DNA of 62,624 nt from the NCBI RefSeq assembly GCF_002895485.1, contig NZ_AZRK01000002.1:231780-294403 (forward strand), written 5' to 3'. Each line of letters opens with the position of its first letter. Position 1 is the stretch's first letter. The notes beneath the pieces are model-generated. The model was not told the origin of the DNA, did no database searches, and saw nothing but the letters and a program-made list of their open reading frames with translations. This stretch comes from Petrotoga sp. 9PWA.NaAc.5.4 (lineage in GTDB: Bacteria; Thermotogota; Thermotogae; Petrotogales; Petrotogaceae). Positions 8,509 through 24,642 of the stretch are shown here, in pieces. Both the position numbers and the translations under genes were made by a program.

Positions 8509-9216
8509 TTATTTTTTTAATCCTACAATTATTGTTTTATAGTGGAGTTCTATAAAGAATAGCAGTTTATCTAAATCTTTTTCCTTTAGAGCTTTAAATA
8601 TATTTTTATGGTTTTCTAAAGTTTTTTTATTATAGGTATTAGTAAATAAATAATCTTCTTTCAAAACTTTCCAATATTTCTCATGCATAAAATTTGTTAA
8701 ATAATTCAAAAAATTTTCTATAACTGAATTTTTTGAATATTGTGCATAGATTTGATGAAAATTGTAATCTTGTTCTAAAACACTGTTTAAATCTTTAGAT
8801 TGTATAGATCTCTTAAACTCAAAAAGGATCTCTTCTATTTTATCTATTAATAACTGATCTGAGTTCTTAATAACCAAAGAAGCAATAGCTTTTTCTATTA
8901 TTTTCCTGCTTTCTATTAAATCATCAATATCATAATTTGGCAACGTTATTTCAAAAGAAGAATTTTTTGGATAATTTCGCACAAAATTACCGCTTCCCTG
9001 GATACTTTCAACCACATTTATTGCCTTTAAATAACTTACAACTTCTCTGATAACTATTCGAGAAACATTGTATTGTTTTGCTAAGATTCTTTCCGAAGGA
9101 AGTTTATCTCCTATTTTTATTTTTGATTCTTCTATTTGTTTTAAAAGGTCTTCTATAATTTCTTTACTTTTACCATCCTTTTTAAAACCTTTTATTTCAT
9201 CTATATTCACAATCAC
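8509..9216 (-). CDS. GntR-family (FadR subfamily) transcriptional regulator
   Basis: This 235-residue protein has an N-terminal winged helix (GDKLPSERILAKQYNVSRIVIREVVSYL, residues ~35-65, then QGSGNFV) and a C-terminal all-helical FCD ligand domain. Putative metal-binding residues D and H lie in LEQDYNFHQIY, with further histidines in the last helices. FCD ligands are usually sugar acids or organic acids. It starts at GTG behind GAGGTG. It is the last gene of the minus-strand transport operon, 48 bases after the GPH symporter. The FadR-type palindrome TGGTATTACCA at the divergent promoters (13.8-13.96 kb) is its obvious candidate operator. The effector could be a sulfonated sugar intermediate; that is inference. 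Confidence 0.88.
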   Translation of the reverse strand: MIVNIDEIKGFKKDGKSKEIIEDLLKQIEESKIKIGDKLPSERILAKQYNVSRIVIREVVSYLKAINVVESIQGSGNFVRNYPKNSSFEITLPNYDIDDLIESRKIIEKAIASLVIKNSDQLLIDKIEEILFEFKRSIQSKDLNSVLEQDYNFHQIYAQYSKNSVIENFLNYLTNFMHEKYWKVLKEDYLFTNTYNKKTLENHKNIFKALKEKDLDKLLFFIELHYKTIIVGLKK

Positions 9217-9264
9217 TTTCGCACCTCTTCTGACAGCTATAAAACTATTAATATTTAAAAATCC

Positions 9265-10683
9265 TTATATCAATTCTTTCTTTAACTCTACTATTTCCTT
9301 ATCCAAATCAGGATCAACAGGCAAATTTTTCCTTTTTTCTTCAAGATATTTTATCAATTTTTTGTGCTTTTTCGAATCAAGTGGATACTTAATGGCAGCT
9401 ATGATTCCAAAAATTAATAAAATCACCGGAACAAACGCGATAATAAATCGTAGAGCAAAAATGAAAGATTCTGGTTGAAGTTGTTCGACTCCGTCTATTG
9501 GGTTCACAAATCCCGCTACCCCCAATACAAAAGTTACTCCCGCAACCGCTAATCCGGACGCAACTTTTCTAATAAAAGTCATAAGGCCACTCAAACTTCC
9601 CTCTTCTCTTTTACCGAATCTTAGTTCTGCTACATCTGTAACATCTCCAAACATCGTATGTGGCATAACTGCAACACCAGAAACGCCCGCGCCTATTATT
9701 GCTGCCATTAGAATTACTTGAAAAGTACTCACATTGCGAGAAAAACTAAATAATATGACGCTCGCTATGCACCATACTATTGCTCCCAATATATAAGAAA
9801 TATTTTTAGAAGTTTTTTTGGCGACAAATGCGTAAAAAGGGATAAATAGTATTTCTGAGATAAAAAGTGCCCCTAAAGCAATTGGTAACAATCCTTCATT
9901 TCCTAAATAATATTTAGTATAATAAGCGAAGATGGTAGATACAACATCTATGGATAAATATGCTAAAAGATATAAAGTTATCAAAAGTCTAAAGGTTTTT
10001 ATCTTAAAAGGTTCAAAAAACATACTTAAAAAGTTGAAAGAGCTTCTTTCATGCTCAAATTCTTTTCTTTCTCTTGTAAATAAAAAGACGCCGATCCATG
10101 GAAGAGAAAAAATAAGTCCAAAAGTAATAGCCATTGCAATGTATCCTTTTCTTACATCATCGAAAGCATTAACAATCAACATAGGTAAAACAGCACAAGC
10201 TAAACCAGAACCGATCGAAAAAGCTAATCTATAAGAATTAAGAGAAGTTCTTTCATTGTAGTCAAGGGTTAGTTCTGCACCTAAAGCGGTATAAGGTGTC
10301 ATAACCATCGTAATAACTGTAGTAAAAATTAAATAAGCCGAAAGAGCATACAAAAATTTTCCCAATTGATTTGGAAAGTTCACTGGATACCAAAGCATGA
10401 AAAAAGAAATGAATATCAAAAAAATCCCCGCTAAAAAGTATGGTCTTCTCCTTCCAAATTTTGTTCTTGTATTATCAGAAATATAACCCATCATAGGATC
10501 AGTTAGGGCATCCCATATCTTACCAATCAATAAGATAGGCGCAATATACTGCATTTTCAATCCGACAACATCGGTTAAAAATATTGCGTAAAAAAAATTG
10601 ATAATGTTGAACGCTCCGCCCCCGTATATATCCCCTGAAGCATAAAAAAGCTTAGTTTTTAAAGATAGCTTTTCACTCTCCAT
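9265..10683 (-). CDS. GPH-family sugar:cation symporter (YihO/YihP type)
   Basis: The 472-residue integral membrane protein has about 12 hydrophobic segments and the signatures of the glycoside-pentoside-hexuronide (GPH) family of MFS carriers: GKIWDALTDPMMGYISDNTRTKFGRRRPY near residues 48-77. GPH members import glycosides by cation symport; E. coli YihO and YihP in the sulfoquinovose cluster belong to this family. It lies 79 bases downstream of the ABC permease gene and directly before the GntR gene, so it probably shares their operon. Given two ABC importers nearby, it could import sulfoquinovose or export an end product such as sulfolactate. Direction cannot be read from the sequence. Confidence 0.85.
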   Translation of the reverse strand: MESEKLSLKTKLFYASGDIYGGGAFNIINFFYAIFLTDVVGLKMQYIAPILLIGKIWDALTDPMMGYISDNTRTKFGRRRPYFLAGIFLIFISFFMLWYPVNFPNQLGKFLYALSAYLIFTTVITMVMTPYTALGAELTLDYNERTSLNSYRLAFSIGSGLACAVLPMLIVNAFDDVRKGYIAMAITFGLIFSLPWIGVFLFTRERKEFEHERSSFNFLSMFFEPFKIKTFRLLITLYLLAYLSIDVVSTIFAYYTKYYLGNEGLLPIALGALFISEILFIPFYAFVAKKTSKNISYILGAIVWCIASVILFSFSRNVSTFQVILMAAIIGAGVSGVAVMPHTMFGDVTDVAELRFGKREEGSLSGLMTFIRKVASGLAVAGVTFVLGVAGFVNPIDGVEQLQPESFIFALRFIIAFVPVILLIFGIIAAIKYPLDSKKHKKLIKYLEEKRKNLPVDPDLDKEIVELKKELI

Positions 10684-10761
10684 TATTTTCTCCCCTTATG
10701 TAATATTTCTTGGATATATTTTACCACTATTTTATAGTTTTAACACATTTATTATTAAAAG

Positions 10762-11580
10762 CTACCCTTTTATTCCACCGCTCAGTCCTTCAATCAAATA
10801 CTTCTGAAAAGTTAAAGTAATTATAAAAATGGGAATCAACATCAATGTTCCTGCTGCAGCCAACTGTCCCCATTGAGGAGCATATTGACCCATAAACCCG
10901 TTTATTACAACAGGCGCTGTTTTAGCTTGAGTACTTGTTAAAACTAAAGCATATAAAAATTCGTTCCATGACATCATAAAAGTAAAAACTCCTGCAACAA
11001 CTAATCCTGGACCAACGAGAGGCAAAAAAATTTTCCAAAAGATTTTTCTTTTGTCACATCCATCTACCAAAGCTGCTTCTTCATATTCTATCGGGACACC
11101 TGAGAAAAAGGGAAGAAGCACCCATATAACATAAGGAATATTAAAACTCATATGAGCAAAAATTAAAGCCGTTAAAGTATCCGTTAATCCTAAAGATCTA
11201 AACATCATAAAAAGTGGAATAGCCAAAGAAATTTGGGGTATCATTCTTGAAATAAGAAAAGAATATGATAGAACCTTTCTGTACCTAAACCTGAATCTTG
11301 CTATTGCATACGAAGCCATTGCTCCCACTAATAATGAAATAGTAGTAGATAATGTACTTACGATAAGACTATTCTTAATACCTAAAAGAATGTCTTTCCT
11401 CTGGAATATTTTTTTATAACTATCTAAGCTAGGTCTAAAACTAAAAGGATTTGCTGACCATATATCTATATCTTTTTTAAATCCGTTTATAATTATAATT
11501 GCTATTGGAAATAATTCTATAATTAAAATTATAATACTCAACAATATAAGAAAATTTTTTTTAATTTGTTTTTTCTTCAT
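10762..11580 (-). CDS. Carbohydrate ABC transporter permease (MalG type)
   Basis: The 272-residue membrane protein has six hydrophobic segments and the EAA loop typical of MalG/UgpE-type permeases (EYEEAALVDGCDKRKIFWKI, about residues 167-186), which docks on the ATPase. It pairs with the MalF-type permease 19 bases upstream and the binding protein before that. No ATPase gene is present in the operon, so a shared MsmX/UgpC-like subunit encoded elsewhere is needed. The neighbouring sulfo-sugar genes suggest sulfoquinovose or a sulfoquinovosyl glycoside as cargo (inference). Confidence 0.9.
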   Translation of the reverse strand: MKKKQIKKNFLILLSIIILIIELFPIAIIIINGFKKDIDIWSANPFSFRPSLDSYKKIFQRKDILLGIKNSLIVSTLSTTISLLVGAMASYAIARFRFRYRKVLSYSFLISRMIPQISLAIPLFMMFRSLGLTDTLTALIFAHMSFNIPYVIWVLLPFFSGVPIEYEEAALVDGCDKRKIFWKIFLPLVGPGLVVAGVFTFMMSWNEFLYALVLTSTQAKTAPVVINGFMGQYAPQWGQLAAAGTLMLIPIFIITLTFQKYLIEGLSGGIKG

Positions 11581-11599
11581 GTCATCATCCCCCTATAAG

Positions 11600-12481
11600 T
11601 TAATCTATGTCTATGTTTCTTCTAACTAGTAATATGGCTATTATTAAACTTATTATTATCAAAATAACTCCCATAGCAGAAGCATATCCTATATTAAAGT
11701 ATCTAAAGGCTTGTTTATAAATATACAAAGACAATAATGTTGTTGCGTTTCCTGGACCACCTTCAGTCATAACAAAAACTTCTGAAAAAATACGTAAAGC
11801 ATCAATAAGCCTTAATAATAGAGCTGTAGTTATAGTTGGTCTTAATAAAGGAACTATTATTTTTAATGTTTTATTCCAAAATCTTGCCCCATCTAAATCT
11901 GCAGCTTCTAATAAGGAAGTTGGTATATTAATAAGACCTGAATATAGAAACATGAACATAAAAGGCCACATTCTCCAAATATCTTGAATAATCACAAAAG
12001 CATAAGCACTTCCCGGTTTTGCAAGCCAAGCGGTTTGTGGCAAACCCAATTTAGTTAATATAAAGCTTATCGCTCCATACTCCGGTTGAAGCATTAAACG
12101 CCACGTTAATCCAGATAAAACTGGTAAAACAAAAACAGGTAAAAGCAAAAGGCTCCTTATCCATTTAACACCTTTAAACTCTCTGTTTAAAAGGATTGCA
12201 ACAAAGAAACCTATTATCAGTTCTAAAGGTATAGCTATAAATATAAATCCTAATTGCAGTAAAAGGGCATGCCAAAATTCTTTATCTTGGAATATTCTTA
12301 TATAATTAGATATTCCTATAAAACCCCTGGAGGTTTCATCCACAAGAGGCCAATTAAAAAAAGATATTCCTACGGCATATAGAATTGGATAAATCAAAAC
12401 AACTCCAACTAAGATTAAAGCAGGTAATATAAAATAGAGTACAGGGGACTTTTCCCCTGTACCCTTTCTTTTAATAACCAT
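11600..12481 (-). CDS. Carbohydrate ABC transporter permease (MalF/UgpA type)
   Basis: The 293-residue permease has six transmembrane segments and the EAA motif (LLEAADLDGARFWNKTLKI) in its fourth cytoplasmic loop. Its start overlaps the end of the solute-binding-protein gene by 11 bases, so translation is coupled. The length and motif match the MalF/UgpA branch of CUT1 importers without the large periplasmic insert of enteric MalF. It forms the membrane channel with the MalG-type subunit that follows. Confidence 0.9.
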   Translation of the reverse strand: MVIKRKGTGEKSPVLYFILPALILVGVVLIYPILYAVGISFFNWPLVDETSRGFIGISNYIRIFQDKEFWHALLLQLGFIFIAIPLELIIGFFVAILLNREFKGVKWIRSLLLLPVFVLPVLSGLTWRLMLQPEYGAISFILTKLGLPQTAWLAKPGSAYAFVIIQDIWRMWPFMFMFLYSGLINIPTSLLEAADLDGARFWNKTLKIIVPLLRPTITTALLLRLIDALRIFSEVFVMTEGGPGNATTLLSLYIYKQAFRYFNIGYASAMGVILIIISLIIAILLVRRNIDID

Positions 12482-13763
12482 ATCTTACAAGCACCTCGTT
12501 GACTCCTTTTATAATATTATCTATAGCTACTTCCGGTGTAAGTCTGCCAGTTACTCCTGCTAACCAATTAACTTTTATAACATCAGATATTTCTGCATAA
12601 TGTTCGAATCTTGGCCTTGAAACAGAATAATTCATTGACTCAAAAATTCCCAAGAAATAAGGTTTCTCAGAAACAAATTCTGGAGCCAATAAAAGATCTC
12701 TTCTTGCAGGAGTCATTCCAGCTTTTACTAAATCTTTTCCAGCTTCATAAGAAGACCACCAATAAGCGAATTCTGCAGCAGCAGCTTGATTTTTAGATGC
12801 TTTTGGTATTCCTAACATCCATGTTCCTCTTATGGCTGCTTTTTTTGCTGGTCCGGCAGGAGGCGCACTATAATGTATTTTTCCCGCAGCAACAGATTTT
12901 TCAAAATCTTCGTGATCTGGAATCATAGCAGGCCATTGGAACATAGAAAAAACTTTTCCTTGATTAAAGTAAGCTATCCTTTCTGAATGTCCCATGTCTT
13001 GCCAACCAGGAGGTGCATATTTACAAAGCTCTTTGTACATATTCATTGCTTGAATAGCTTTTTCTTTGTCTAAAACAACCTTGTAACTGTCACCATTTTT
13101 TTCTAATACATTCGTGCCGTATGCTTCGAACATAAAAATTGCTTCGCATGTAGCTCCTTCAGCGTTTTTCGTGAAGGGAGCAAAACCATATATCCCTTTA
13201 CTTGATAAGAATTTACTAATATCTAATAACTGGTCAAAGGTTTTGGGTATATCTAATTCATATCCATATTGTTTGTGAAATTCTTCTTTATATTTGTAAT
13301 TATTTACAATATCCTTTCTTGTCATCCAAACGTACACATTGCCATTTATCGGAAGTCCTCTATATTCACCATTCCAATATGAGCCTTCTGCGACTCCCGA
13401 AATCAAATCTGTTTCAAGATCTATTTTTTCGAAAACCTTACCTTCTGGCCAGTCTGAATAGGGTATAAAAAGATTTCCAAACTGTGGTATAAAAGGTTCG
13501 TCTACAGCAACTAAATCGTAATCAGTTTTATTCATAGAGACAGATAAGGCAGTTTTTTCAAGCATCGAACCACTTGGTAATCTTTCCAAAATTACTTTTA
13601 TCCCTGTCTTATTCTCAAAGTCTTTAATCATTGAATCAACGGCTATGGTTAATGCATCGTCCCAAACTAATACTTTTATTGTAGTTCCTTTGTAAGGCTG
13701 AGAAAATAAAGACGTTCCAAACAATAAAAAAACTACCAACAAAAAAGATAATACCTTTTTCAT
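12471..13763 (-). CDS. Sugar ABC transporter solute-binding protein (family 1)
   Basis: The 430-residue protein has an N-terminal signal peptide (MKKVLSFLLVVFLLFGTSLF) without a lipobox cysteine. A family 1 extracellular solute-binding fold follows (KVLVWDDALTIAVDSMIKDFENKTGI, then tryptophan-rich segments such as MFQWPAMIP and FAYWWSSYEAGK). It captures the substrate for the two permeases behind it. It is the first gene of the minus-strand operon, with AAAGGAGG in front and the operator-bearing promoter at 13.80-13.83 kb. The cargo is inferred from context to be sulfoquinovose or its glycerol glycoside. Confidence 0.88.
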   Translation of the reverse strand: MKKVLSFLLVVFLLFGTSLFSQPYKGTTIKVLVWDDALTIAVDSMIKDFENKTGIKVILERLPSGSMLEKTALSVSMNKTDYDLVAVDEPFIPQFGNLFIPYSDWPEGKVFEKIDLETDLISGVAEGSYWNGEYRGLPINGNVYVWMTRKDIVNNYKYKEEFHKQYGYELDIPKTFDQLLDISKFLSSKGIYGFAPFTKNAEGATCEAIFMFEAYGTNVLEKNGDSYKVVLDKEKAIQAMNMYKELCKYAPPGWQDMGHSERIAYFNQGKVFSMFQWPAMIPDHEDFEKSVAAGKIHYSAPPAGPAKKAAIRGTWMLGIPKASKNQAAAAEFAYWWSSYEAGKDLVKAGMTPARRDLLLAPEFVSEKPYFLGIFESMNYSVSRPRFEHYAEISDVIKVNWLAGVTGRLTPEVAIDNIIKGVNEVLVRYGY

Positions 13764-13801
13764 AAAAATTACCTCCTTTCAAGATGGAATGCTACATTTT
13801 T

Positions 13802-13830
13802 ATTTTATCACTGGTAATACCTTTATGCAA
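13802..13830 (-). promoter_or_regulatory. Promoter with GntR operator for the transport operon
   Basis: On the minus strand TTGCAT (13825-13830), a 17-base spacer and TAAAAT (13802-13807) form a sigma-A-type promoter. The spacer holds the near-palindrome TGGTAATACCT (plus strand 13812-13822), matching the perfect TGGTATTACCA at the divergent promoter in 10 of 11 positions. Its position between -35 and -10 fits repression. Confidence 0.75.
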
Positions 13831-13926
13831 CTGTAAAAATTTTTAATTAGCTGTAATAAGAAACAATTATCGCTTTTTATATCTAATTATTCAACAGTTT
13901 CTTATATAATCTTCTTTTTTCTAAAT

Positions 13927-13964
13927 TTGACAAAAAAATTTAAAGTGATATAATGGTATTACCA
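13927..13964 (+). promoter_or_regulatory. Promoter with GntR operator for the catabolic operon
   Basis: TTGACA (13927-13932), a 16-base spacer and TATAAT (13949-13954) form a near-consensus promoter pointing at the transaldolase operon. The perfect palindrome TGGTATTACCA (13954-13964) overlaps the end of the -10 box and the expected start of transcription. This is the FadR-subfamily TNGTNNNACNA pattern. The leader of the transcript would be about 360 bases and contains two repeat elements. Confidence 0.8.
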
Positions 13965-13997
13965 GTAATTTATGATGAGAACAGTAACAAAGTCTAC

Positions 13998-14073
13998 ACT
14001 TTAGAAATATTAATTTTTCAGAAAGTAAGCATTTGAGTTTATGGCGGTTCATAGCGTTTTAGAATTTCTAAAG
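13998..14073 (+). repeat. Miniature, internally deleted copy of the leader repeat
   Basis: This 76-bp unit has both ends of the family (ACTTTAGAAAT left, AATTTCTAAAG right) and the left segment (TTTTTCAGAAAGTAAGC), but lacks the hairpin and mini-frame region. It is directly followed by full copy E. Internal deletion with both ends kept is typical of non-autonomous mobile elements. Confidence 0.75.
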
Positions 14074-14092
14074 GCAGTATAAAAAAACAGCG

Positions 14093-14292
14093 ACTTTAGA
14101 AATGAGAATTTTCTAAGAATAAAATTTTGAATTTAAAATGGGTCCAGGGTGGAGTCCTTCCCCCCCTTTGGTTACAGGTAGCAAAGAAGTTAAAGAAATT
14201 CATAGTTAGTAAGTATTAGAGTTATAGAGGTATTTTTAAAAAAATTTAAAACTAAAAGCTTGGTAAAACTTAAGTTTTGGGATTTCTAAAGT
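14093..14292 (+). repeat. 5'-leader repeat element, copy E
   Basis: A 200-bp copy with ACTTTAGAAAT at the left and ATTTCTAAAGT at the right end. The hairpin is AGGGT-GGA-GTCCT. The 17-codon frame is open to TAA at 14287-14289 but its start codon is TTA instead of TTG. It lies in the leader between the operator-bearing promoter and the transaldolase gene, which shows that such an element can be part of the transcript. Confidence 0.83.
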
Positions 14293-14326
14293 AGGTATAA
14301 AAAAGAAAAAAGGAGGAGGTTGATTA

Positions 14327-15001
14327 ATGAAGTTATTCCTTGATAGCGCTAAAATAGAAGAGATAACCTATGCTATTGAAAAATGGGGAATAGAAGGAGT
14401 AACAAGTAATCCAAAGCACATAAAAAATTCAGGAAAAACTATGGAATATTTCATGAATGAAGTTAAAAACATTGTAGAAGGAACAGATATTACAGTAAGT
14501 GTAGAAATAAATCCACACCTAAATAATGCCGAAGAAATGCTAAAAGAAGCAGAAAAAATTGCGGGCATTTCAAAAAACTTTGTTATTAAAATACCTGCTA
14601 CCGAAGAAGGGCTTTATGCTTTGAAAAAGTTGAGCGGAACCGAAATTAAAGTAAATGCTACTTTAGTTTTTAATTCGTTTCAGGCTTTACAAGCCGCTCG
14701 AATGGGAGCTTACTATATAAGTCCATTTTTAGGTTGGAGAGAAGAAAGAGGAGAAACAAATATAAACTATATTTCTGATATAGTTAACGCTGTTCACAAT
14801 TATGGTTTTAAATCTCAAGTGTTAGTCGCAGCAATAAGGAATGCCAAACAGATAACGGAAGCTATCAATGCTAAAGCTGATATTTTAACCGCGGGATTTG
14901 AGGTATATAAAAATGCTTTCGGGACGCCTTACACTAAAATGGGATTAGAAATATTTAGTGAAGCTTGGGATGCAATAAAAAAACAGGGGGAATTAAAATG
15001 A
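14327..15001 (+). CDS. Transaldolase, probable 6-deoxy-6-sulfofructose transaldolase (SftT-like)
   Basis: The 224-residue protein is a short transaldolase/fructose-6-phosphate aldolase family member. The Schiff-base lysine is K88 in FVIKIPAT, and the strand-1 motif GVTSNPKHI (residues 24-32) is present. A glutamate (E60) sits where fructose-6-phosphate aldolase has its characteristic glutamine, which favours transaldolase activity. In the sulfo-TAL pathway of Bacillota an enzyme of this family splits 6-deoxy-6-sulfofructose, giving sulfolactaldehyde and passing the C3 unit to glyceraldehyde 3-phosphate. It is the first gene of the operon, starts at ATG after GGAGGAGG, and overlaps the next gene as ATGA. 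The family is certain; the sulfonated substrate is inferred from the neighbours. Confidence 0.85.
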   Translation: MKLFLDSAKIEEITYAIEKWGIEGVTSNPKHIKNSGKTMEYFMNEVKNIVEGTDITVSVEINPHLNNAEEMLKEAEKIAGISKNFVIKIPATEEGLYALKKLSGTEIKVNATLVFNSFQALQAARMGAYYISPFLGWREERGETNINYISDIVNAVHNYGFKSQVLVAAIRNAKQITEAINAKADILTAGFEVYKNAFGTPYTKMGLEIFSEAWDAIKKQGELK

Positions 15002-15300
15002 AAGAATATAGATTTTTAGTTCATGAAGAGGGAGATAGTGTTGGTGTAGTAACTAGTGATTTAAAAGCTGGTGAAACAATAATAGGAAAAAATTTAGAAA
15101 AAGATATAGAATATGAGATAAAAGTTTTAGAAGAAATTCCCTTAGGTAATAAAGTTGCGTTAAAAGATATAAAAGAGGGAGAAGAAATAATAGAATACGG
15201 TGAAAAAATTGGAGTAGCAACCAAACCAATTAAAAAAGGCGAAAGAGTTCATGTGCACAATATAAAAAGTATTAGGTGGGGAGGTAAAGTTAATGAATAA
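14998..15300 (+). CDS. suyA: Sulfolactate sulfo-lyase small subunit-like SAF protein (SuyA-like)
   Basis: The 100-residue protein is a lone SAF domain of the UxaA superfamily. It begins FLVHEEGDSVGVV and ends VHVHNIKSIRW, which resembles SuyA, the small subunit of (R)-3-sulfolactate sulfo-lyase, more than the N-terminal domain of altronate dehydratase. The ATG at 14998 overlaps the transaldolase stop; an upstream TTG at 14965 is inside that gene and lacks a ribosome binding site, while AGGGGG precedes 14998. It overlaps the large-subunit gene by 8 bases. With that subunit it should cleave sulfolactate to pyruvate and sulfite. Altronate/galactarate-type dehydration remains possible on sequence alone. 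Confidence 0.75.
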   Translation: MKEYRFLVHEEGDSVGVVTSDLKAGETIIGKNLEKDIEYEIKVLEEIPLGNKVALKDIKEGEEIIEYGEKIGVATKPIKKGERVHVHNIKSIRWGGKVNE

Positions 15301-16447
15301 TAAAATTTTGGGATACATTAGAGAAAATGGTAAAGTCGGTGTAAGAAATCATGTATTAATAATTCCTGTTGATGACATTTCTAATTCTGCAGCAATAGCA
15401 GTAGAAAATATAATACATGGAACAATAGCAATTCCTCATCATTACGGGAGACTTCAATTTGGAAGAGATTTAGATTTGTTCTTTAAAACTATGATTGGAA
15501 CAGGAAGTAACCCAAATGTGGCAGCGGTGATAGTAGTAGGAATAGAACCAAATTGGACAAATAGAATTGCTCAAGGTATTGCTGAAACTGGCAAGCCGGT
15601 GGAAGCTTTTTATATAGAGAAAAATGGTGAATTAAAAACAATAGAAAAAATGGCAAGGTCAGCTTTGAAATTAGTAGAGTACGCAACAGGTTTAAAAAAA
15701 GAATGGGTTGATTTTTCTGAACTCACAATAAGTTTAAAATGTGGAGAATCTGACACAACCTCAGGCTTAGCTTCAAACAGAACTGTTGGTAGATTTGTTG
15801 AAAGATTTTTAGAAGCTAATGGAACAGTGCTTTTCGGAGAAACAACAGAATTAACAGGTGCTGAGCATATCATCGCCCAGCGTTTTAAAAAAGAAGAAGA
15901 TAGAAATAAGTTCTTAAAAATGTTCAATGATTACCAAGAATTAATAAAAGAACAAGGTGTCGACTTATTAGGCTCACAACCTACCGAAGGTAATATTGCC
16001 GGTGGTTTAAGTACAATTGAAGAAAAAGCTCTCGGAAACATTCAAAAGATTGGAAATGCAAGAATTGATAGTGCTTTGGATTATTGTGAACAACCAGTTG
16101 GAAAAGGTTTGCATTTTATGAACACTTCTTCAGCCGCTGCTGAAGCTGTTACTTTATTTGCAGCTACAGGTGCGGTCATACATCTGTTTCCCACTGGCCA
16201 AGGAAACATTATTGGTAACCCTATTGAACCTGTTTTGAAAATAACAGCTAACCCTAAAACAGTAAATTATATGTCAGAACATATAGATTTGGATGTTTCT
16301 GGATTACTGAAGTTAGATGGTACTTTAGATGATTATGCCGATAAATTGTGGAATAAAATAGTTGAAACAGCAAATGGGAAGTTTGTAAAAGCTGAGATAC
16401 TAAAACATAGAGAATTTGTTTTAACAAAATTATTTCCAAGTGCGTGA
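15293..16447 (+). CDS. suyB: Sulfolactate sulfo-lyase large subunit-like protein (SuyB-like, UxaA family)
   Basis: The 384-residue protein is the C-terminal-type subunit of the UxaA/GarD/SuyB superfamily of iron-dependent lyases. It opens GYIRENGKVGVRNHVLIIP, a family hallmark, and has the conserved KCGESDTTSGLASN and ETTELTGAEHI segments. SuyB members remove bisulfite from (R)-sulfolactate; UxaA and GarD members remove water from sugar acids. The split two-gene arrangement and the sulfo-sugar neighbours favour SuyB. No uronate isomerase or oxidoreductase of the altronate route is nearby. The start is ATG 15293 behind GGGGAGG inside the SuyA-like gene. Confidence 0.75.
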   Translation: MNNKILGYIRENGKVGVRNHVLIIPVDDISNSAAIAVENIIHGTIAIPHHYGRLQFGRDLDLFFKTMIGTGSNPNVAAVIVVGIEPNWTNRIAQGIAETGKPVEAFYIEKNGELKTIEKMARSALKLVEYATGLKKEWVDFSELTISLKCGESDTTSGLASNRTVGRFVERFLEANGTVLFGETTELTGAEHIIAQRFKKEEDRNKFLKMFNDYQELIKEQGVDLLGSQPTEGNIAGGLSTIEEKALGNIQKIGNARIDSALDYCEQPVGKGLHFMNTSSAAAEAVTLFAATGAVIHLFPTGQGNIIGNPIEPVLKITANPKTVNYMSEHIDLDVSGLLKLDGTLDDYADKLWNKIVETANGKFVKAEILKHREFVLTKLFPSA

Positions 16448-16454
16448 ATGAAAT

Positions 16455-17693
16455 ATGAGACAAATAAAAATTCCGTATGGCAAAAGTGAGATAGCATTGA
16501 AGATCAAAAATGAAATAGTTGATATAATAGAAAAAAAAGAAAAAAGAAACAAAAAATTAAGCCAAAAAGAAATAAAAGACAAAATAAAAGAATTTATAAA
16601 AATTCTCTCGTTAGAAGAAAAAAAGAATATAGCAATTGCTATACCTGATATTACAAGGCCAAAAATTCCCGAAGAATTTTTAAGGCTTATCTTAGAAAAT
16701 TTGTTAAACAATTTCCAGGGGAACATAAAAATTTTTGTAGGGACAGGTTTACACAGTTTTAAAACGTCTGATATAAATTTACTTATACCAAAAGAGTTTA
16801 AAAATAATCAAAGGCTTAAAGTGTATTTCCATAATGCAAAATCTGAAAATAATGTCTATATTGGAAAAACAAAAAGAGATACTCCAGTATTTATAGAAAA
16901 AGAGTACTATACAAGTGATTTAAAAATTGTAATAGGGGTAGTTGAACCTCATCAATTTGCAGGATTTTCAGGAGGAGCTAAAGGAGCGGTTATAGGGTTA
17001 GGTGGAGAGCAAACTATATCAAAAAATCATTCTCTAATTCTCGATTTTAATTCTAAAATAGGTAAAATAGTAGATAATCCTTTGCGAGAAGATATTGACG
17101 AAGCAGGAAAAATTATAGGAGTAGATTTTTTAATAAATATAATTATGAATAATAACAATGAAATCATGGAATTATTTTGTGGTCAGCATCCCTATTCACA
17201 TAGAGAAGCTGTAAAATATATTGAAAATTTTATAGGAGTACCTATAGAGAAAAAATATGACTTGGTTATCGCTTCTCCGGGAGGATTTCCAAGAGATATA
17301 GATCTTTACCAAGCTCAGAAGGCTTTGACTACAGCTCATTTTTTTTGTAAAAACAAAGGTTCAATATTACTCGTTGCAGAATGCAGCAGGGGAATAGGAG
17401 AGAAAAGCTTTTTAGATCTTATCAAAAGATTTAAATCTCCAGAGTTACTTGTAAAAAACTTTGATTTTGATAACTTTAAAGTTGGTCCTCACAAAGCTTT
17501 AATATTTGCTAAGTTAGCTTTAAATAATGAATTGTTTCTATATTCAGAAAATGTAAGAGATGAACTTAAAGGTACCTTTATAACTCCAATAAAAGATTTA
17601 AAAAGATTTATTGAAGATTTTGGCGAAGATAAAGAAATCTGTATTTTGCCCAAAGCGATTCAGATATTACCTTTGGAAGGAGGAAGTAATTGA
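16455..17693 (+). CDS. LarA-type nickel-dependent 2-hydroxyacid racemase
   Basis: The 412-residue protein is a LarA homologue. Every key residue of Lactobacillus plantarum LarA can be placed at constant offset: D65 and R68 in DITRP, H100 in GTGLH, H166 in VEPHQFAGFSGG, the cofactor-binding K176, and the nickel ligand H192. It therefore should carry the nickel-pincer nucleotide and racemise a 2-hydroxyacid. LarB, LarC and LarE genes needed for cofactor synthesis are not in the window. It starts 7 bases after the SuyB-like stop without a clear Shine-Dalgarno sequence, so translation is coupled. The position between a sulfolactate lyase and an aldehyde dehydrogenase suggests a sulfolactate racemase; that is inference. 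Confidence 0.85.
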   Translation: MRQIKIPYGKSEIALKIKNEIVDIIEKKEKRNKKLSQKEIKDKIKEFIKILSLEEKKNIAIAIPDITRPKIPEEFLRLILENLLNNFQGNIKIFVGTGLHSFKTSDINLLIPKEFKNNQRLKVYFHNAKSENNVYIGKTKRDTPVFIEKEYYTSDLKIVIGVVEPHQFAGFSGGAKGAVIGLGGEQTISKNHSLILDFNSKIGKIVDNPLREDIDEAGKIIGVDFLINIIMNNNNEIMELFCGQHPYSHREAVKYIENFIGVPIEKKYDLVIASPGGFPRDIDLYQAQKALTTAHFFCKNKGSILLVAECSRGIGEKSFLDLIKRFKSPELLVKNFDFDNFKVGPHKALIFAKLALNNELFLYSENVRDELKGTFITPIKDLKRFIEDFGEDKEICILPKAIQILPLEGGSN

Positions 17694-17694
17694 A

Positions 17695-19113
17695 ATGGAA
17701 ATGATTGTTGGTGGAAAAAAAGTAAGCAAAGCAAAAACCTTAAAAGTTTACAATCCATATAGTGGAGAAATAGTTGATGATGTCCCTGATGGTGACATTA
17801 ACGATGTAGAAAATGCAATTAATTCAGCCATAGAGGGTAAAAAGATAATGAAAGATCTTCCTTTGCATAAGAGAGTAGAAATTTTAGAAAACGTATCTAC
17901 TTTGCTTTTAGAAAGAGAAAAAGAATTATCGGAAACAATAGTAAAAGAAGTTGGAAAAACAATAAAAGAAGCTAAAAATGAAGTTATAAGAACTTCTGAA
18001 TTGTTTAGGTACGCTGCAGAAGAGGCAAAAAGAATTCATGGAGAAACACTTCCCTTTTCTTCTTTAAAAGGCTCGGAACATAAAAGAGGATACTATGTGT
18101 TGGAGCCTATTGGCATAGTAGGTGCAATAACTCCCTTCAATGTTCCACTTTCTTTAGCCGCGCACAAAGTTGCTCCAGCGATAGCTGCTGGTAACGCTGT
18201 AATCTTAAAACCGGCTACTCAAACACCTCTTAACGCCCTAATATTAGGAGAATTACTATTAGAAGCAGGAATGCCAGAAAAAGCTTTAAGTGTTCTAACA
18301 GGTAGAGGTAGTATTGTTGGGAATGCAATAGTAAAAGATCCACGGATAAGATTTTTAAGTTTTACAGGAAGTGTCGAAACGGGAGAATACATATGTCAAA
18401 ATGCTGGAATGAAAAAGATAGGACTGGAATTAGGTTCTAATTCTGCTTTAATTGTTATGGATTCTGCAGACTTAGACAAGGCTACTCAAGCAACTGTAGA
18501 TGGGGGTTTTTCTCTTGCGGGACAAGTGTGCATCTCAGTTCAAAGAGTTTTTATACAAGAAAAAGTATACGAAGAGTTTATAAACAAACTTGTTGAAAAA
18601 ACAAAAAGGATCATATTAGGAGATCCTATGGATGAAAAAACAACAATGGGACCTGTAATAGATGAACAAAATGCTCAAAGAATTGTGGAATGGATTCAAG
18701 AAGCAGAAGTCAAAGGTGGGAAAATTGTAACTGGTGGTAAAAGAAATTATACTTTGATAGAACCAACAATAGTTATAGATACACCTTTAGAAACAAAAAT
18801 TATGCAAAATGAACTTTTTGGACCAGCTGTTGCTCTTCGAAAAATTAAATCATTACAAGAAGCAATAGACCTAACAAATCGAAGTATTTATGGACTCCAA
18901 GCAGGTGTATTTACAGAGAAAATAAGTGAAGCTTTCAAAGCTGCAGAAGAAATTGAAGCAGGTGGAGTTATGATAAATGAAGGGCCAAGATATAGAGCTG
19001 ATTTTATGCCTTACGGAGGATACAAAAAGAGTGGAATTGGAAGAGAAGGAATAAAATTTGCTATTGAAGAAATGTCTGAAATGAAAGTAATTTGTTTTGA
19101 TCTAAAGGAGTGA
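17695..19113 (+). CDS. Aldehyde dehydrogenase, probable sulfolactaldehyde dehydrogenase (SlaB-like)
   Basis: The 472-residue protein is a complete NAD(P)-dependent aldehyde dehydrogenase. It shows N149 in TPFNVP, the nucleotide-binding FTGSVETG near 224-230, E245 in KIGLELG and the catalytic C279 in GQVCISVQR. The ATG at 17695 follows GGAAGGAGGA; a reading frame continues 84 bases upstream into the LarA-like gene but has no ribosome binding site. In sulfo-ED and sulfo-TAL clusters an enzyme of this group oxidises (S)-sulfolactaldehyde to (S)-sulfolactate. Lactaldehyde or succinate semialdehyde dehydrogenase are family alternatives; the cluster favours the sulfonated substrate. Confidence 0.83.
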   Translation: MEMIVGGKKVSKAKTLKVYNPYSGEIVDDVPDGDINDVENAINSAIEGKKIMKDLPLHKRVEILENVSTLLLEREKELSETIVKEVGKTIKEAKNEVIRTSELFRYAAEEAKRIHGETLPFSSLKGSEHKRGYYVLEPIGIVGAITPFNVPLSLAAHKVAPAIAAGNAVILKPATQTPLNALILGELLLEAGMPEKALSVLTGRGSIVGNAIVKDPRIRFLSFTGSVETGEYICQNAGMKKIGLELGSNSALIVMDSADLDKATQATVDGGFSLAGQVCISVQRVFIQEKVYEEFINKLVEKTKRIILGDPMDEKTTMGPVIDEQNAQRIVEWIQEAEVKGGKIVTGGKRNYTLIEPTIVIDTPLETKIMQNELFGPAVALRKIKSLQEAIDLTNRSIYGLQAGVFTEKISEAFKAAEEIEAGGVMINEGPRYRADFMPYGGYKKSGIGREGIKFAIEEMSEMKVICFDLKE

Positions 19114-19118
19114 AATAT

Positions 19119-20459
19119 GTGAAAGAAAATATAAATTTGGGAATGATCGGTTTTGTAAGAAACACTTACGATGTTTCAAAAGGTCAAGAAATTTACGATG
19201 AAGAATTGGGTAAACTTAAAAATCGGATCGAGAACATAAACCTTTTTGGTTGGAATAAAGTTGTTGAGTATCCTCAAGAGTTAGACGAAGCCATTAAATA
19301 CTTTAAAAAAAGTGATTTAGATGCAATTATCTTAATGAGCTCTACCTTTCATTTAGGGCAATTAGCTATTATGACAGCAAAAAGTTTAAACATTCCGATG
19401 TTAATTTGGGCGCTACCAGAACCACCGTATGATGGAGGAAGGGTTAGACTTAATTCTTTAGTAGGAGCACATTTAGATTGTTCTAATCTTTATAAATCAG
19501 GTTTTGATAACTTCGAATTTTTATATGGACAAATGTCTGACAATAATTTTTATAATAAAATAAACGTCTGGATAGATACTGTTAGAATAGTTAAAAAGTT
19601 GAAAAATATTAAAATAGGTTTAATAGGGAATCATGCTCAAGGTTTTTATAACATTGATGTATACGAACCTGAAATAGTAAAAGAATTTGGTGCAGAAATA
19701 GAATATGTACCTTTAAACACTGTATTTTCAATTAAAGCAAAAAGTGAAGACATTAAAAATGAAATGGATGAAATCAAACGTATCTATAATTTTGGAGAAA
19801 ATATGACAGAAGATAGATTAGAAAAAGTTGCAAATCTTTCTTTGTCTTTAAAAAATTTAGAAAATCAAAATAAATTCAATGTCATGGCTATAAGATGTTG
19901 GCCAGAATTTGGTAATACTTATGGAATTTCTCCTTGTGCTTCTATGTCTTACTTTATGGGTGAACATATTCCCGTTGCATGTGAAGGTGATATAGAGGGA
20001 GCTTTAGGAATGTCGGCATACAAAGCAATTGGTTGTGATCAAATATTTTTAGCAGATATTAGTCAAATCTTTGAGGAAGAAAGCAGCTTATTATTATGGC
20101 ATTGTGGTGTTGCACCATATAATTTATGGGATGAAAAATCAGAAAAAACTTTGGATAAATATTTTGCAGGAGGGCGTGGAGTTACTGCAGGCTTTGTATT
20201 AAAACCAGGACCAGTAACTATTTCAAGAATAGACTATGCAAGAGGGAAATTTAGATTATTAGTTGTAGAAGGAGAAGCGATACCTACAAGGAAAAACTTA
20301 AAAGGTACTTTCGTGAAAGTAAAAATTCCTAATGCAAAAATTTTTACTGAAAACATTATTTCCAAAGGTTTTTCACATCATGTAGTATTAGGATATGGAA
20401 ACTATGTACAGATTTTAAAAAACTTTGCAAAAATTAAACATTGGGAAGTTTTCGAATAA
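19119..20459 (+). CDS. L-fucose/D-arabinose isomerase-fold protein, probable sulfoquinovose isomerase
   Basis: The 446-residue protein matches the L-fucose isomerase-like fold. Candidate metal and catalytic residues are E289 and D291 in CEGDIEGAL, D313 in ADIS and H328 in LWHCG; RCWPEF near residue 259 is also family-typical. It likely interconverts an aldose and a ketose. In a transaldolase-type sulfoquinovose route the missing step is sulfoquinovose to 6-deoxy-6-sulfofructose, and this is the only isomerase in the cluster. The start is taken as GTG 19119 because AAAGGAG ends 8 bases before it; GTG 19110 would lie inside that site. It follows the dehydrogenase by 5 bases. Confidence 0.75.
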   Translation: MKENINLGMIGFVRNTYDVSKGQEIYDEELGKLKNRIENINLFGWNKVVEYPQELDEAIKYFKKSDLDAIILMSSTFHLGQLAIMTAKSLNIPMLIWALPEPPYDGGRVRLNSLVGAHLDCSNLYKSGFDNFEFLYGQMSDNNFYNKINVWIDTVRIVKKLKNIKIGLIGNHAQGFYNIDVYEPEIVKEFGAEIEYVPLNTVFSIKAKSEDIKNEMDEIKRIYNFGENMTEDRLEKVANLSLSLKNLENQNKFNVMAIRCWPEFGNTYGISPCASMSYFMGEHIPVACEGDIEGALGMSAYKAIGCDQIFLADISQIFEEESSLLLWHCGVAPYNLWDEKSEKTLDKYFAGGRGVTAGFVLKPGPVTISRIDYARGKFRLLVVEGEAIPTRKNLKGTFVKVKIPNAKIFTENIISKGFSHHVVLGYGNYVQILKNFAKIKHWEVFE

Positions 20460-20495
20460 TTTGCTTTTAAAATCTATATAAGGATAGTGTTATTG

Positions 20496-22448
20496 ATGAA
20501 CATAATATCAGAAAGGGGTTCTTTCAAAATTTTTATTAAAGATTTTGAATTATTTAATTCAAACCAAATTTTTTATGGTAGCGGATACCCTAAAATAAGA
20601 GAAAACCATGGACACTTCAAAATACACGAGAAAAAGGTTATAAAAGAGACTGAAAGTACGAACATAAAAATATTAAATTCAGAAGAATCTTCAGTCGCAA
20701 TAAAAATAGAAATTCCTCAAAAATTCAACAGAATAATGATCAAAATTAATGCTTTTGAGTTAGAGCAAATTTTTGGAGGAGGAGAGCAATATACCCATGT
20801 CAATTTGAAAGGGAAAAAATTCCCTATTTGGGTTCAAGAACAAGGTGTCGGAAGAGGTCATGATTTAATTTCATTGGCAACTAAAATAAAGGGTATTAGT
20901 GGAAGTTGGTATAGTACTTATTTCCCTTCACCTATTTTTCTATCGACTATGGGGTATGCCTTAATCTTTGAAACATATTCTCCCCTAATAGTAGACTTAA
21001 AAAGAAAAATATCACTCTTTGAAATTTGGGACAATCAAGTAAAGATCATAATAATGCAGGGAGAAAGTATTAGGGAATTACGCCAAAAAATAAAATCTCA
21101 TTTCAATTTGTTACATACATTACCTGATTGGATTCATGGAACAATTATCGCTTCTCAAGGAGGTACAGAAATTTTATCAAAGAAAGTTGACTTACTGACA
21201 CAAAAAGAAGTTCCACTTAGTGCTGTTTGGTGTCAAGATTGGTCAGGAACTAATAGAACATCTTTTGGGAGACAAGTTTATTGGAATTGGGAATATGACA
21301 ATAACTCTTATAAAAACTTACCTCAAAAAATTCAAGAATTAAATACTCAAGGTATTAAGTTTCTTTCTTACATAAATCCTTTTCTCATCGAGGGAAGTAG
21401 ATTATTTAACATTGCGAAAGAAAAAAACTACTTTGTAAAAAATTCTCAAGGGGAGATTTATAAGATTTATGTTACAACTTTTCCTGCCGGACTTATAGAT
21501 TTAACTAACAAAGATGCTTATAATTGGTACAAAGAAATCATTAAAAACAATATGATAAACATAGGTACCTCAGGGTGGATGGCTGATTTTGGTGAATATT
21601 TACCAATCGATGCAGTTTTATTTTCTAAAGGAGATTCTATTAAATACCATAATAAATATTCCGTTGATTGGGCTAAACTAAATTATGAAGCCATTGTAGA
21701 ATCTAAAAAAGAGGATATTATTTTCTTTATGAGATCTGGATATTTAGATTCAGTCTCATATTGTCCAGTGTATTGGGCAGGAGATCAAAACGTTAATTGG
21801 AGTAAAAGTGATGGAATCGCTTCTATTATTCCAGCAGGTTTAAGCTCTGGGCTTGGAGGTGTAGATTTTTTTCATTGGGATGCTGGAGGATATACCTCTT
21901 TATTGTGGATGAAAAGAACACCCGAACTATTTATGCGTTGGATAGAATTAAGTGCATTTTCTTTAATTATGCGAACACACGAAAGTAATAGACCAGATAG
22001 AAATATTCAGTTCGATTCCAACGAAAAAATTTTTAAACATTTTATTTGGATGTCAAAAGTTCATTATTCTTTAAAAAATTATTTAAAATACCAAATTAAA
22101 GAAAGTTTAGAGCAAAAATTGCCTGTTATGAGGCCTCTATCTCTCAATTATCCAGAAGATATAAAAAGCTATACGCAACTTTATCAATACATGTTAGGTA
22201 GAGACTTATTAATAGCGCCTATTTTATCTAAGAAGAAAAATGAGCGACAAGTTTACTTACCACCTGATAACTGGGTGTATCTGTGGAACCATAAAAAATA
22301 TTCAGGCAATAAATATATTAAAGTAAAAGCTACTATAGGATACATTCCAGTTTTTATCAAAGAAAGTTCTCCTTATGTTGATCAGATAATTTTTGAAATT
22401 GAACAATTAAGAGAAAAACTTAATATAGATACCGAAATTTTTTGTTAA
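20496..22448 (+). CDS. GH31 alpha-sulfoquinovosidase (YihQ-like)
   Basis: The 650-residue glycoside hydrolase family 31 enzyme follows E. coli YihQ closely. The nucleophile is D364 in GWMADFGEYLP and the acid/base is D430 in WAGDQNV; MRTHESNRP is also shared. Placing the YihQ substrate residues by constant offset gives Q221 (Q262), Q247 (Q288), W263 (W304) and Y466 (Y508), but Q260 instead of R301. It should release sulfoquinovose from sulfoquinovosyl glycerol or plant sulfolipid. It lacks a signal peptide, so it acts in the cytosol after import. The ATG at 20496 is chosen over GTG 20487 and TTG 20493 because AGGA at 20481 is best spaced. It is the last gene of the operon. Confidence 0.85.
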   Translation: MNIISERGSFKIFIKDFELFNSNQIFYGSGYPKIRENHGHFKIHEKKVIKETESTNIKILNSEESSVAIKIEIPQKFNRIMIKINAFELEQIFGGGEQYTHVNLKGKKFPIWVQEQGVGRGHDLISLATKIKGISGSWYSTYFPSPIFLSTMGYALIFETYSPLIVDLKRKISLFEIWDNQVKIIIMQGESIRELRQKIKSHFNLLHTLPDWIHGTIIASQGGTEILSKKVDLLTQKEVPLSAVWCQDWSGTNRTSFGRQVYWNWEYDNNSYKNLPQKIQELNTQGIKFLSYINPFLIEGSRLFNIAKEKNYFVKNSQGEIYKIYVTTFPAGLIDLTNKDAYNWYKEIIKNNMINIGTSGWMADFGEYLPIDAVLFSKGDSIKYHNKYSVDWAKLNYEAIVESKKEDIIFFMRSGYLDSVSYCPVYWAGDQNVNWSKSDGIASIIPAGLSSGLGGVDFFHWDAGGYTSLLWMKRTPELFMRWIELSAFSLIMRTHESNRPDRNIQFDSNEKIFKHFIWMSKVHYSLKNYLKYQIKESLEQKLPVMRPLSLNYPEDIKSYTQLYQYMLGRDLLIAPILSKKKNERQVYLPPDNWVYLWNHKKYSGNKYIKVKATIGYIPVFIKESSPYVDQIIFEIEQLREKLNIDTEIFC

Positions 22449-24557: not shown

Positions 24558-24591
24558 CCTCTTTTCAAAATTAATCATAAATAATAAAGAT

Positions 24592-24627
24592 ATCCAAGGA
24601 AGAACCTATTTTCTTCCTTGGATTTTT
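24592..24627 (+). terminator. Intra-operon terminator/attenuator after the binding protein
   Basis: A perfect 13-bp stem (ATCCAAGGAAGAA / TTCTTCCTTGGAT) with a 6-base loop is followed by TTTTT. It separates the binding-protein gene from the permeases, whose ribosome binding site AGGAGG begins right after it. Partial read-through would give more binding protein than permease. Confidence 0.88.
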
Positions 24628-24642
24628 TAGGAGGAATTAACT

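What the first reader, a model, noticed from the sequence alone, without database searches (positions are those of the whole stretch)
8509..22448. A complete candidate sulfoquinovose pathway of transaldolase type that ends in desulfonation
One divergent locus holds a GH31 sulfoquinovosidase, a fucose-isomerase-like protein, a short transaldolase, an aldehyde dehydrogenase, a SuyA/SuyB-like pair, a LarA racemase, an ABC importer, a GPH carrier and a GntR regulator. These cover every step from sulfoquinovoside import to pyruvate plus sulfite. Known sulfo-TAL clusters in Bacillota stop at sulfolactate or dihydroxypropanesulfonate, which is excreted. A cell-internal route that also cuts the C-S bond, in a Thermotogota-like organism, would be new to my knowledge. 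Only the enzyme families are seen directly; the substrates are inferred from their joint presence.
Basis: partly seen in the sequence, partly recalled or inferred. Interest (0 to 1): 0.95.

Follow-up and report, generated by a model that had tools for sequence, protein, structure and literature searches.

The report
Sulfosugar breakdown operon with nickel-racemase-like gene
This bacterium carries a conserved gene set that looks able to break down sulfoquinovose, the plant and algal sulfosugar, all the way to pyruvate and sulfite; that route was already predicted in print for related bacteria, and the part I did not find in print is a nickel-racemase-like enzyme that would flip the handedness of the last intermediate.

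Summary
In detail: all named genes lie at 8509-22448. The transaldolase groups with BmSF-TAL (100/100), apart from housekeeping ones. SuyB is of sulfolyase type. The cluster recurs in 14 of 103 phylum genomes. The novelty claim fails: a 2022 review (PMC9594981) states that sulfo-TAL clusters of Thermotogae and Chloroflexi contain SuyAB, suggesting complete SQ carbon use. What I did not find in print is the LarA step. Sulfo-TAL gives (S)-sulfolactate; SuyAB takes (R). LarA lies in the cluster of 7 genomes and within 8 kb of SuyB in 23 of 80 named loci; these 30 keep all nickel-pincer residues and share a Gln after the catalytic His. I predict a sulfolactate racemase, perhaps the true role of the LarAH5 'malate racemase' family. 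Against: seven Pseudothermotoga-group clusters lack it; in 400 Chloroflexota genomes this LarA and SuyB coincide only in the query's own genome, and 11 of 29 LarAs there have that Gln without SuyB; the window's genome lacks LarC and an over-cut-off LarE. Also odd: YihQ's Arg301, by recall sulfonate-binding, is Gln in 12 of 12 readable cluster GH31s. Nothing was tested biochemically.

The parts
8509..9216 (-). GntR/FCD regulator, probable repressor of the divergon
   Evidence: Pfam PF00392, PF07729; 62-68% beside the cluster in 3 close relatives
9265..10683 (-). GPH-family carrier (YihO/YihP family by recall), candidate SQ or SQ-glycerol importer
   Evidence: PF13347, TIGR00792 235 bits over cut-off 231; 81-83% in 3 close relatives
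10762..11580 (-). ABC sugar permease 2
   Evidence: ORF and synteny; no family scan
11600..12481 (-). ABC sugar permease 1
   Evidence: ORF and synteny; no family scan
12471..13763 (-). ABC solute-binding protein
   Evidence: PF01547; best solved relative MalE3 102 bits, SmoF (SQ-glycerol binder) 43 bits; 55-81% in the clusters of relatives
13927..13954 (+). sigma-70 promoter match TTGACA-16-TATAAT with TG before the -10, for the catabolic operon
   Evidence: 12 of 12 match; 4 promoter-like sites found against 3.2 expected in the stretch
13954..13964 (+). TGGTATTACCA palindrome at the end of the promoter, predicted GntR/FCD operator
   Evidence: 2 in the window, 0.49 expected, 8 of 100 shuffles reach 2; same element between binding-protein and TAL genes in L022 and L023 and at the mechanical TAL start in L024
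14327..15001 (+). 6-deoxy-6-sulfofructose transaldolase (SftT/SqvA type)
   Evidence: BmSF-TAL 233 bits vs 150 for ordinary TAL; tree with BmSF-TAL 100/100
14998..15300 (+). SuyA, small subunit of sulfolactate sulfolyase
   Evidence: SAF domain; directly before SuyB in the 13 relatives
15293..16447 (+). SuyB, large subunit of (R)-sulfolactate sulfolyase
   Evidence: GD_AH domains; 70-88% in 13 other genomes, next best 42%; 57-67% in the named loci other than Pseudothermotoga, some beside SlcC/ComC or HpsN types
16455..17693 (+). LarA-family protein, predicted nickel-pincer (S)/(R)-sulfolactate racemase
   Evidence: LarAH5 model 423 bits, cut-off 462; NPN and catalytic residues, HQF loop, GPHK; tree
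17695..19113 (+). aldehyde dehydrogenase, inferred sulfolactaldehyde dehydrogenase
   Evidence: PF00171; best NCBIfam model lactaldehyde dehydrogenase 537 of 650 bits; FNV...H pattern in 12 of 12 readable cluster copies
19110..20459 (+). SqvD/SftI-like sulfoquinovose isomerase
   Evidence: NF048012 256 bits, cut-off 700; Fucose_iso_C
20487..22448 (+). GH31 of the YihQ group, with Gln at the YihQ Arg301 position
   Evidence: PRK10426 model 732 bits, cut-off 553 (named alpha-glucosidase, the YihQ model by recall); YihQ structures 444-492 bits vs 143 for YicI

Best explanation
An inducible operon for complete use of sulfoquinovose (SQ) carbon by a Thermotogota-like bacterium. SQ or its glycoside enters by the ABC importer or the GPH carrier; GH31 frees SQ; the SqvD-like isomerase makes sulfofructose; the transaldolase passes the dihydroxyacetone unit to glyceraldehyde-3-phosphate, giving fructose-6-phosphate and (S)-sulfolactaldehyde; the aldehyde dehydrogenase gives (S)-sulfolactate; LarA inverts it to (R)-sulfolactate; SuyAB cuts it to pyruvate and sulfite, which is probably exported. 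GntR represses from the TGGTATTACCA site. Well supported by sequence: TAL and SuyAB identity and the conserved operon. Inferred: substrates of GH31, isomerase and dehydrogenase, the LarA reaction, sulfite export, regulation. The confidence below is for the whole chain with the LarA step; for the SQ-to-sulfite route leaving LarA open I would say about 0.82.
For: TAL groups with BmSF-TAL, with 12 positions fixed in 13 SF-type rows and absent in 17 other TALs; SuyB gap 70% vs 42%; cluster in 14 of 103 genomes; GH31 in the YihQ group; SftI model hit below cut-off; stereochemistry from review passages: sulfo-TAL gives (S)-sulfolactate, SuyAB is (R)-specific, SlcC/ComC proposed to racemise elsewhere; LarA in 7 clusters of two families of the phylum and within 8 kb of SuyB in 23 of 80 named loci, in 15 of these directly downstream; Gln after the catalytic His in 30 of 30 linked and 0 of 17 chosen unlinked LarAs of the phylum; 0 of 23 LarA loci hold the complete SlcC+ComC pair, against 9 of the other 57 (p 0.053); promoter and operator.
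Against: GH31 Arg301 is Gln in 12 of 12 readable copies. Seven f3 genomes carry the cluster without LarA, SlcC, ComC or HpsN in the stretches read. No LarC and no over-cut-off LarE in the own genome. In 400 Chloroflexota genomes, 16 have SuyB at 61% or more and 15 a LarA over 290 bits, and only the query's own genome has both; at most 4 first-look candidates per genome were scored, so some may be missed. 0 of 10 further SuyB neighbourhoods read hold LarA. Of 29 other Chloroflexota LarAs examined, none beside SuyB, 11 have the Gln and 8 of these also the HK motif. LarA occurs with ComC alone in 5 of 23 loci (p 0.78). 24 of 80 SuyB loci show none of LarA, SlcC, ComC or HpsN. The isomerase is far below the SftI cut-off.
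Confidence: 0.6

Rival explanations
1. The pathway is as described, but LarA is a malate (or other 2-hydroxyacid) racemase that happens to sit in the operon, or is a relic without cofactor; SuyAB of these bacteria accepts (S)-sulfolactate.
For: The family label is malate racemase; f3 clusters lack LarA; no LarC or over-cut-off LarE in the own family; Gln-type LarAs away from SuyB in Chloroflexota, 11 of 29.
Against: LarA kept between SuyB and ALDH in two families of the phylum and near SuyB in several other phyla; Gln loop not seen in Mar2, in malic-enzyme-linked LarAs or in 17 unlinked ones of the phylum; catalytic residues intact.
Confidence: 0.27
2. The locus handles a sulfonated sugar glycoside other than sulfoquinovoside, or another acidic alpha-glycoside, because GH31 lacks the arginine of YihQ.
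For: Gln at Arg301 in 12 of 12 readable cluster GH31s.
Against: The other recalled motif positions 262, 288, 304 and 508 are kept, except Phe at 508 in L060; YihQ structures and model are far ahead of YicI; TAL is of SF type.
Confidence: 0.09
3. An ordinary sugar-acid operon (galactarate/altronate type) with a fructose-6-phosphate aldolase, no sulfonate involved.
For: Pfam names alone.
Against: TAL tree and SuyB identity gap; the SuyAB-like/LarA pair beside malic enzyme in L064 is clearly distinct.
Confidence: 0.04

Closest known systems
Extended sulfo-TAL gene clusters of Thermotogae and Chloroflexi (PMC9594981 section 11, citing Liu et al. 2020 BBRC)
   Same: Sulfo-TAL genes plus SuyAB, complete use of SQ carbon proposed; the window falls with genomes titled Pseudothermotoga in the same phylum
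   Different: LarA and the GH31 Arg301 are not mentioned in the passages read; Figure 5A (legend seen only) and the 2020 paper could not be seen
Bacillus sulfo-TAL pathway (SqvA/BmSF-TAL, SqvD, SlaB; review passages)
   Same: Transaldolase clade, isomerase family, oxidation of sulfolactaldehyde
   Different: There sulfolactate is the end product; here SuyAB and LarA follow
SlcC/ComC two-dehydrogenase sulfolactate racemase with SuyAB (Chromohalobacter, Paracoccus; passages)
   Same: Inversion of sulfolactate before SuyAB
   Different: Here a single LarA-family gene in place of two dehydrogenases
LarAH5/Mar1 of Desulfitobacterium hafniense (PMC7583248 passages)
   Same: Seven of nine SuyAB-linked LarAs scanned pass the LarAH5 cut-off
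   Different: Mar1 was active on malate alone among the substrates tested (Km 55 mM; the authors say malate may not be native), and 'sulfo' does not occur in that paper; window LarA, 423 bits, is under the 462 cut-off

Membership tests
Sulfo-TAL pathway | SF-type transaldolase, by phylogeny | tested here: met
   window on the side of BmSF-TAL, 100/100, apart from 17 other TALs (16 of the phylum and 6ys0)
Sulfo-TAL pathway | SqvD/SftI isomerase | tested here: inconclusive
   NF048012 256 bits, cut-off 700
Sulfo-TAL pathway | SLA dehydrogenase or reductase | tested here: inconclusive
   Best NCBIfam model is lactaldehyde dehydrogenase, 537 of 650 bits. FNV and His as reported for B. megaterium SlaB (PMC10599462 passages), but Ser where SlaB has Asn, counted by spacing to the Cys, no alignment made
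Sulfolactate sulfolyase SuyAB | SuyB type rather than UxaA/GarD paralogues | tested here: met
   57-67% to SuyB of named loci outside Pseudothermotoga, some beside HpsN or SlcC/ComC types; paralogues at most 42%; no tree made
Sulfolactate sulfolyase SuyAB | cleaves (R)-sulfolactate to pyruvate and sulfite | not testable with these tools
   needs enzyme assay
GH31 sulfoquinovosidase | family score and catalytic Asp pair | tested here: met
   PRK10426 732 bits over 553; D405 and D472 kept
GH31 sulfoquinovosidase | QQRWY motif (recalled, not read in a call) | tested here: not met
   QQQWY: Arg301 is Gln in 12 of 12 readable; L060 also has Phe at 508
LarA nickel-pincer racemase | NPN-binding and catalytic residues | tested here: met
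   D72, R75, H108, H174, K184, H200, Q295, K298 all kept (residue list partly recalled)
LarA nickel-pincer racemase | LarC/LarE cofactor synthesis in the genome | tested here: not met
   LarC absent, LarE not over cut-off; the T. maritima control rings for LarC. LarB was not searched
LarAH5 equivalog (NF052595) | score over 462 bits | tested here: not met
   423 bits; the f10 orthologue in L055 passes with 483

The most novel reading that the evidence does not exclude
The LarAH5 family, founded on the poor 'malate racemase' Mar1, is in large part a nickel-pincer sulfolactate racemase: a third way, beside SlcC/ComC and HpsOPN, to feed (R)-sulfolactate to SuyAB, present in several phyla; and in the window's family it works although the genome lacks LarC and an over-cut-off LarE, so by salvaged cofactor or an unknown maturation route.
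Probability: 0.45. Interest if true: 0.72.

Novelty: new variant of a known kind. Interest (0 to 1): 0.55.

Why it matters
It adds a plausible missing step (inversion of sulfolactate) to a predicted single-organism route of SQ carbon to pyruvate and sulfite, offers a natural substrate for a racemase family whose reported one fits poorly, and gives a named gene to test. It also marks two weak points of the published prediction: the altered sulfonate site of the GH31 and the missing cofactor synthesis.

Tried and rejected
Considered and rejected: ordinary sugar-acid operon. The Gln loop as proof of SuyAB linkage: rejected, since 11 of 29 Chloroflexota LarAs not beside SuyB have it. The HK motif is not specific either: Mar2 and several unlinked LarAs have it. 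General LarA/SuyB co-occurrence in Chloroflexota: tested, not found. Mutual exclusion of LarA and ComC alone: not found (5 of 23, p 0.78). Sulfite reductase sought: none in 41 genomes. PF17656 was a wrong guess for LarC and says nothing.

Rows left out: the first TAL tree held only one ordinary TAL because my filter dropped the others; redone, where suy_L069 was dropped as a duplicate of L025. The split TAL of L024 is in no tree; the TAL of L063 is represented by L068, the same contig. L057 and L063 are short stretches, so GH31 and isomerase of those two were not read and ALDH of L057 neither. In one search long Chloroflexota ORFs were cut to their last 470 residues. The 17 control LarAs were chosen by me from the further matches, not all of them.

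Corrections to my notebook: '7/10' for LarAH5 is 7 of 9 SuyAB-linked plus one control; LarA is not the single commonest neighbour but ties with a regulator family; 8r56 and 6pnr are not named sulfoquinovosidase in the output; Bacteroidota is not among the LarA-bearing loci.

Papers: PMC9594981, section 11 read and passages seen; PMC11770544, section 4 read and passages seen; passages seen in PMC12890257, PMC10755693, PMC12421959, PMC7583248, PMC11796402, PMC6278857, PMC8873060, PMC10599462, PMC11489063, PMC13372026; all others only as search listings. Liu 2020 BBRC was not seen; Frommeyer 2020, the SF-TAL structure paper and the 2018 sulfoquinovosidase paper are not held. 'Not found in print' for a LarA sulfolactate racemase rests on searches (20 of 221 listed), 27, 59 and 60 and on 'sulfo' being absent from two LarA papers.
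Full report
Observation. Five genes on the minus strand (GntR, GPH carrier, two ABC permeases, binding protein) face seven on the plus strand (TAL, SuyA, SuyB, LarA, ALDH, isomerase, GH31). I saw no ABC ATPase ORF in the locus. Between the two arms lies a 12-of-12 sigma-70 promoter match, though the number of promoter-like sites is no more than chance gives, and at its end TGGTATTACCA, 13954-13964. The same palindrome type lies between the binding-protein and TAL genes in L022 and L023, and at the mechanical TAL start of L024. In the window the pattern is expected 0.49 times and found twice; 8 of 100 shuffles reach two. I read it as the operator of the GntR protein, by inference.

Conservation. 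A search of 103 genomes of the phylum found SuyB at 70% identity or more in 14, the window's included, then nothing until 42%. The 13 other neighbourhoods hold the same gene set: binding protein, two permeases, TAL, SuyA, SuyB, in some LarA, then ALDH, and isomerase and GH31 in either order; L057 and L063 are short stretches that show only part. In four f3 clusters the isomerase is only 24-26% identical to the window's (L025, L059, L061, L062). Two named records (L068, L069) have the contig lengths of two f3 genomes (for G062; for G038) and are titled Pseudothermotoga, so I take f3 for that group.

Transaldolase. The best solved relative is BmSF-TAL at 233 bits, against 150 for ordinary transaldolases. 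In a tree of 41 rows, rooted at the midpoint, a 100/100 split puts the window with BmSF-TAL, the other cluster TALs and six from Chloroflexota records on one side, and 17 housekeeping TALs (one set, 99/95) with four SuyB-linked TALs (L070, L099, L128, L131) on the other. Twelve positions are fixed in 13 SF-type rows and absent from the 17, among them H31, W137 and A169.

SuyAB. Some of the 80 carry HpsN-type genes (13 loci) or SlcC- with ComC-type genes (9 loci), the surroundings known from the literature. The paralogues in the window's phylum are at most 42% identical. Those read in L064 and L065 sit beside a LarA, and in L064 also beside a malic enzyme and TctABC transporter genes, so they are something else.

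GH31. The PRK10426 model is passed (732 over 553 bits; it is named alpha-glucosidase, and I recall it as the YihQ model). YihQ structures score 444-492 bits and two further GH31 entries 495 and 513, against 143 for YicI. But the Arg301 of YihQ, which I recall as the sulfonate-binding arginine, is Gln in 12 of 12 readable cluster GH31s, with Arg or Lys one place before it, where YihQ has Lys. One search for print on this residue found nothing. The first step is therefore the least secure of the catalytic ones.

Isomerase and dehydrogenase. The isomerase hits the SftI model at 256 of 700 bits and an arabinose isomerase model at 38, and no solved structure by sequence. The ALDH's best NCBIfam model is lactaldehyde dehydrogenase at 537 of 650 bits; sulfoacetaldehyde dehydrogenase SafD follows with 415 of 700. 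It shows FNV and a His eight residues after the Asn in 12 of 12 readable copies, the pattern given for B. megaterium SlaB in PMC10599462 (passages), yet Ser stands where SlaB has Asn by spacing to the Cys. Both functions are inferred from context.

LarA and handedness. The review passages say that sulfo-TAL yields (S)-sulfolactate while SuyAB is an (R)-sulfolactate sulfolyase, with SlcC/ComC proposed to racemise it elsewhere. Here LarA follows SuyB, in all four f1 and all three f10 genomes with the cluster (L057 is cut inside LarA). Among the 80 named SuyB loci a LarA lies within 8 kb in 23, in 15 of them directly downstream; with 23 loci it ties with a GntR-type regulator family as the commonest neighbour after SuyA, three antisense families that overlap SuyB set aside. 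All 30 LarAs keep the NPN and catalytic residues, all 30 have Gln after the catalytic His (LarA position 175), and 29 of 29 readable ones have His-Lys where Mar2 has its proposed malate-binding Lys351 (Mar2 residue roles from PMC7583248 passages). None of 17 LarAs of the phylum that I chose from the further matches has that Gln, though several have the His-Lys. In a tree of 80 rows, 27 of the 30 lie in one supported set of 39 rows (97/84) with 12 Chloroflexota LarAs not beside SuyB, while Mar2 and the malic-linked ones lie outside; L070, L071 and L072 lie apart. Seven of nine SuyAB-linked LarAs scanned pass the LarAH5 cut-off, L070 and L071 do not, and the malic-linked control L064 passes LarAH6 instead; the window's own scores 423 of 462. 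[quoted passage not shown] D. hafniense is listed with suyB (PMC6278857 passage) and as a sulfolactate user (PMC12890257 passage). I did not see the D. hafniense locus.

Against the LarA reading. (1) Seven f3 genomes have the cluster without LarA; no SlcC-, ComC- or HpsN-type gene was found in the stretches read. All seven have other LarA matches elsewhere. (2) LarC is in 15 of 103 genomes of the phylum and LarE over its cut-off in 16, none of them in the window's family, whose genome is 99.77% complete; LarB was not searched. The three f10 genomes with the cluster have both, LarC of G096 in pieces. Of the 23 genomes of the other SuyB-linked LarAs, 17 have LarC; their completeness is not told. 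(3) In 400 Chloroflexota genomes, 16 have SuyB at 61% or more and 15 a LarA over 290 bits (41-100% identity); only the query's own genome has both. At most four first-look candidates per genome were scored, so misses are possible. Of 10 further SuyB neighbourhoods read (of 15), none has LarA, seven have an SlcC-type gene (one of them weak, in L218) and four of these also a ComC-type gene. Of the 29 other Chloroflexota LarAs examined, none with SuyB in its flanks, 11 have the Gln and 8 of these also His-Lys. G136 has a LarA at 60% identity directly after a TAL (48% to the window's, type not tested) but no SuyB hit. (4) LarA occurs with ComC alone in 5 loci and with SlcC alone in 1; with the complete pair in 0 of 23, against 9 of 57 (p 0.053). 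Other Fisher tests: SlcC p 0.016, HpsN p 0.015, any of the three p 0.013, ComC p 0.78; with 3 kb or more on both sides (52 loci) 0.02, 0.09, 0.06 and 1.0. The loci are related, so these are descriptive. 24 of 80 loci show none of the four.

Sulfite. No NIR_SIR domain was found in 41 genomes including the own (11 of 14 control genomes ring). Sulfite is then exported or dealt with otherwise; no gene for this was identified.

Novelty. The route itself is in print as a genomic prediction: PMC9594981 section 11, read. A later review passage (PMC12890257) speaks of reduction to DHPS in many Thermotogae and Chloroflexi. Searches for a LarA-type sulfolactate racemase found none (in part, 27, 59, 60), but the 2020 paper and Figure 5A could not be seen. 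I therefore call it a new variant of a known kind, the variant being the LarA step, with the altered GH31 site as a second oddity.

Noticed in passing
G000:C7:5027-6280 (L148:4025-5323): A second LarA of another type (HFM loop, DQW) beside an aldehyde dehydrogenase in the own genome, which has no LarC and no over-cut-off LarE; several relatives likewise have LarA without LarC.
   Followed up: partly
L064:7958-15002 and L065:8176-10882: SuyAB-like paralogues (40%) with a LarA (LarAH6 type in L064); in L064 also malic enzyme and TctABC genes: a likely dicarboxylate or hydroxyacid module.
   Followed up: partly
L024:10211-10925: The transaldolase of this relative (G008) is split over two frames, real or a sequencing error.
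   Followed up: no
window 23241-25515: A second sugar ABC system (binding protein and permease by sequence look) follows GH31; its binding protein also follows the cluster in G008 at 84%.
   Followed up: no
L216, L217, L221 (Chloroflexota): SuyAB with ALDH, SlcC and ComC types opposite a SqvD-like isomerase and ABC transport genes, no TAL match in the stretch: perhaps another extended SQ route using the two-dehydrogenase racemase.
   Followed up: partly
G136:C566:4709-6606 (L205): Transaldolase directly followed by a Gln-loop LarA, no SuyB hit in the genome.
   Followed up: no
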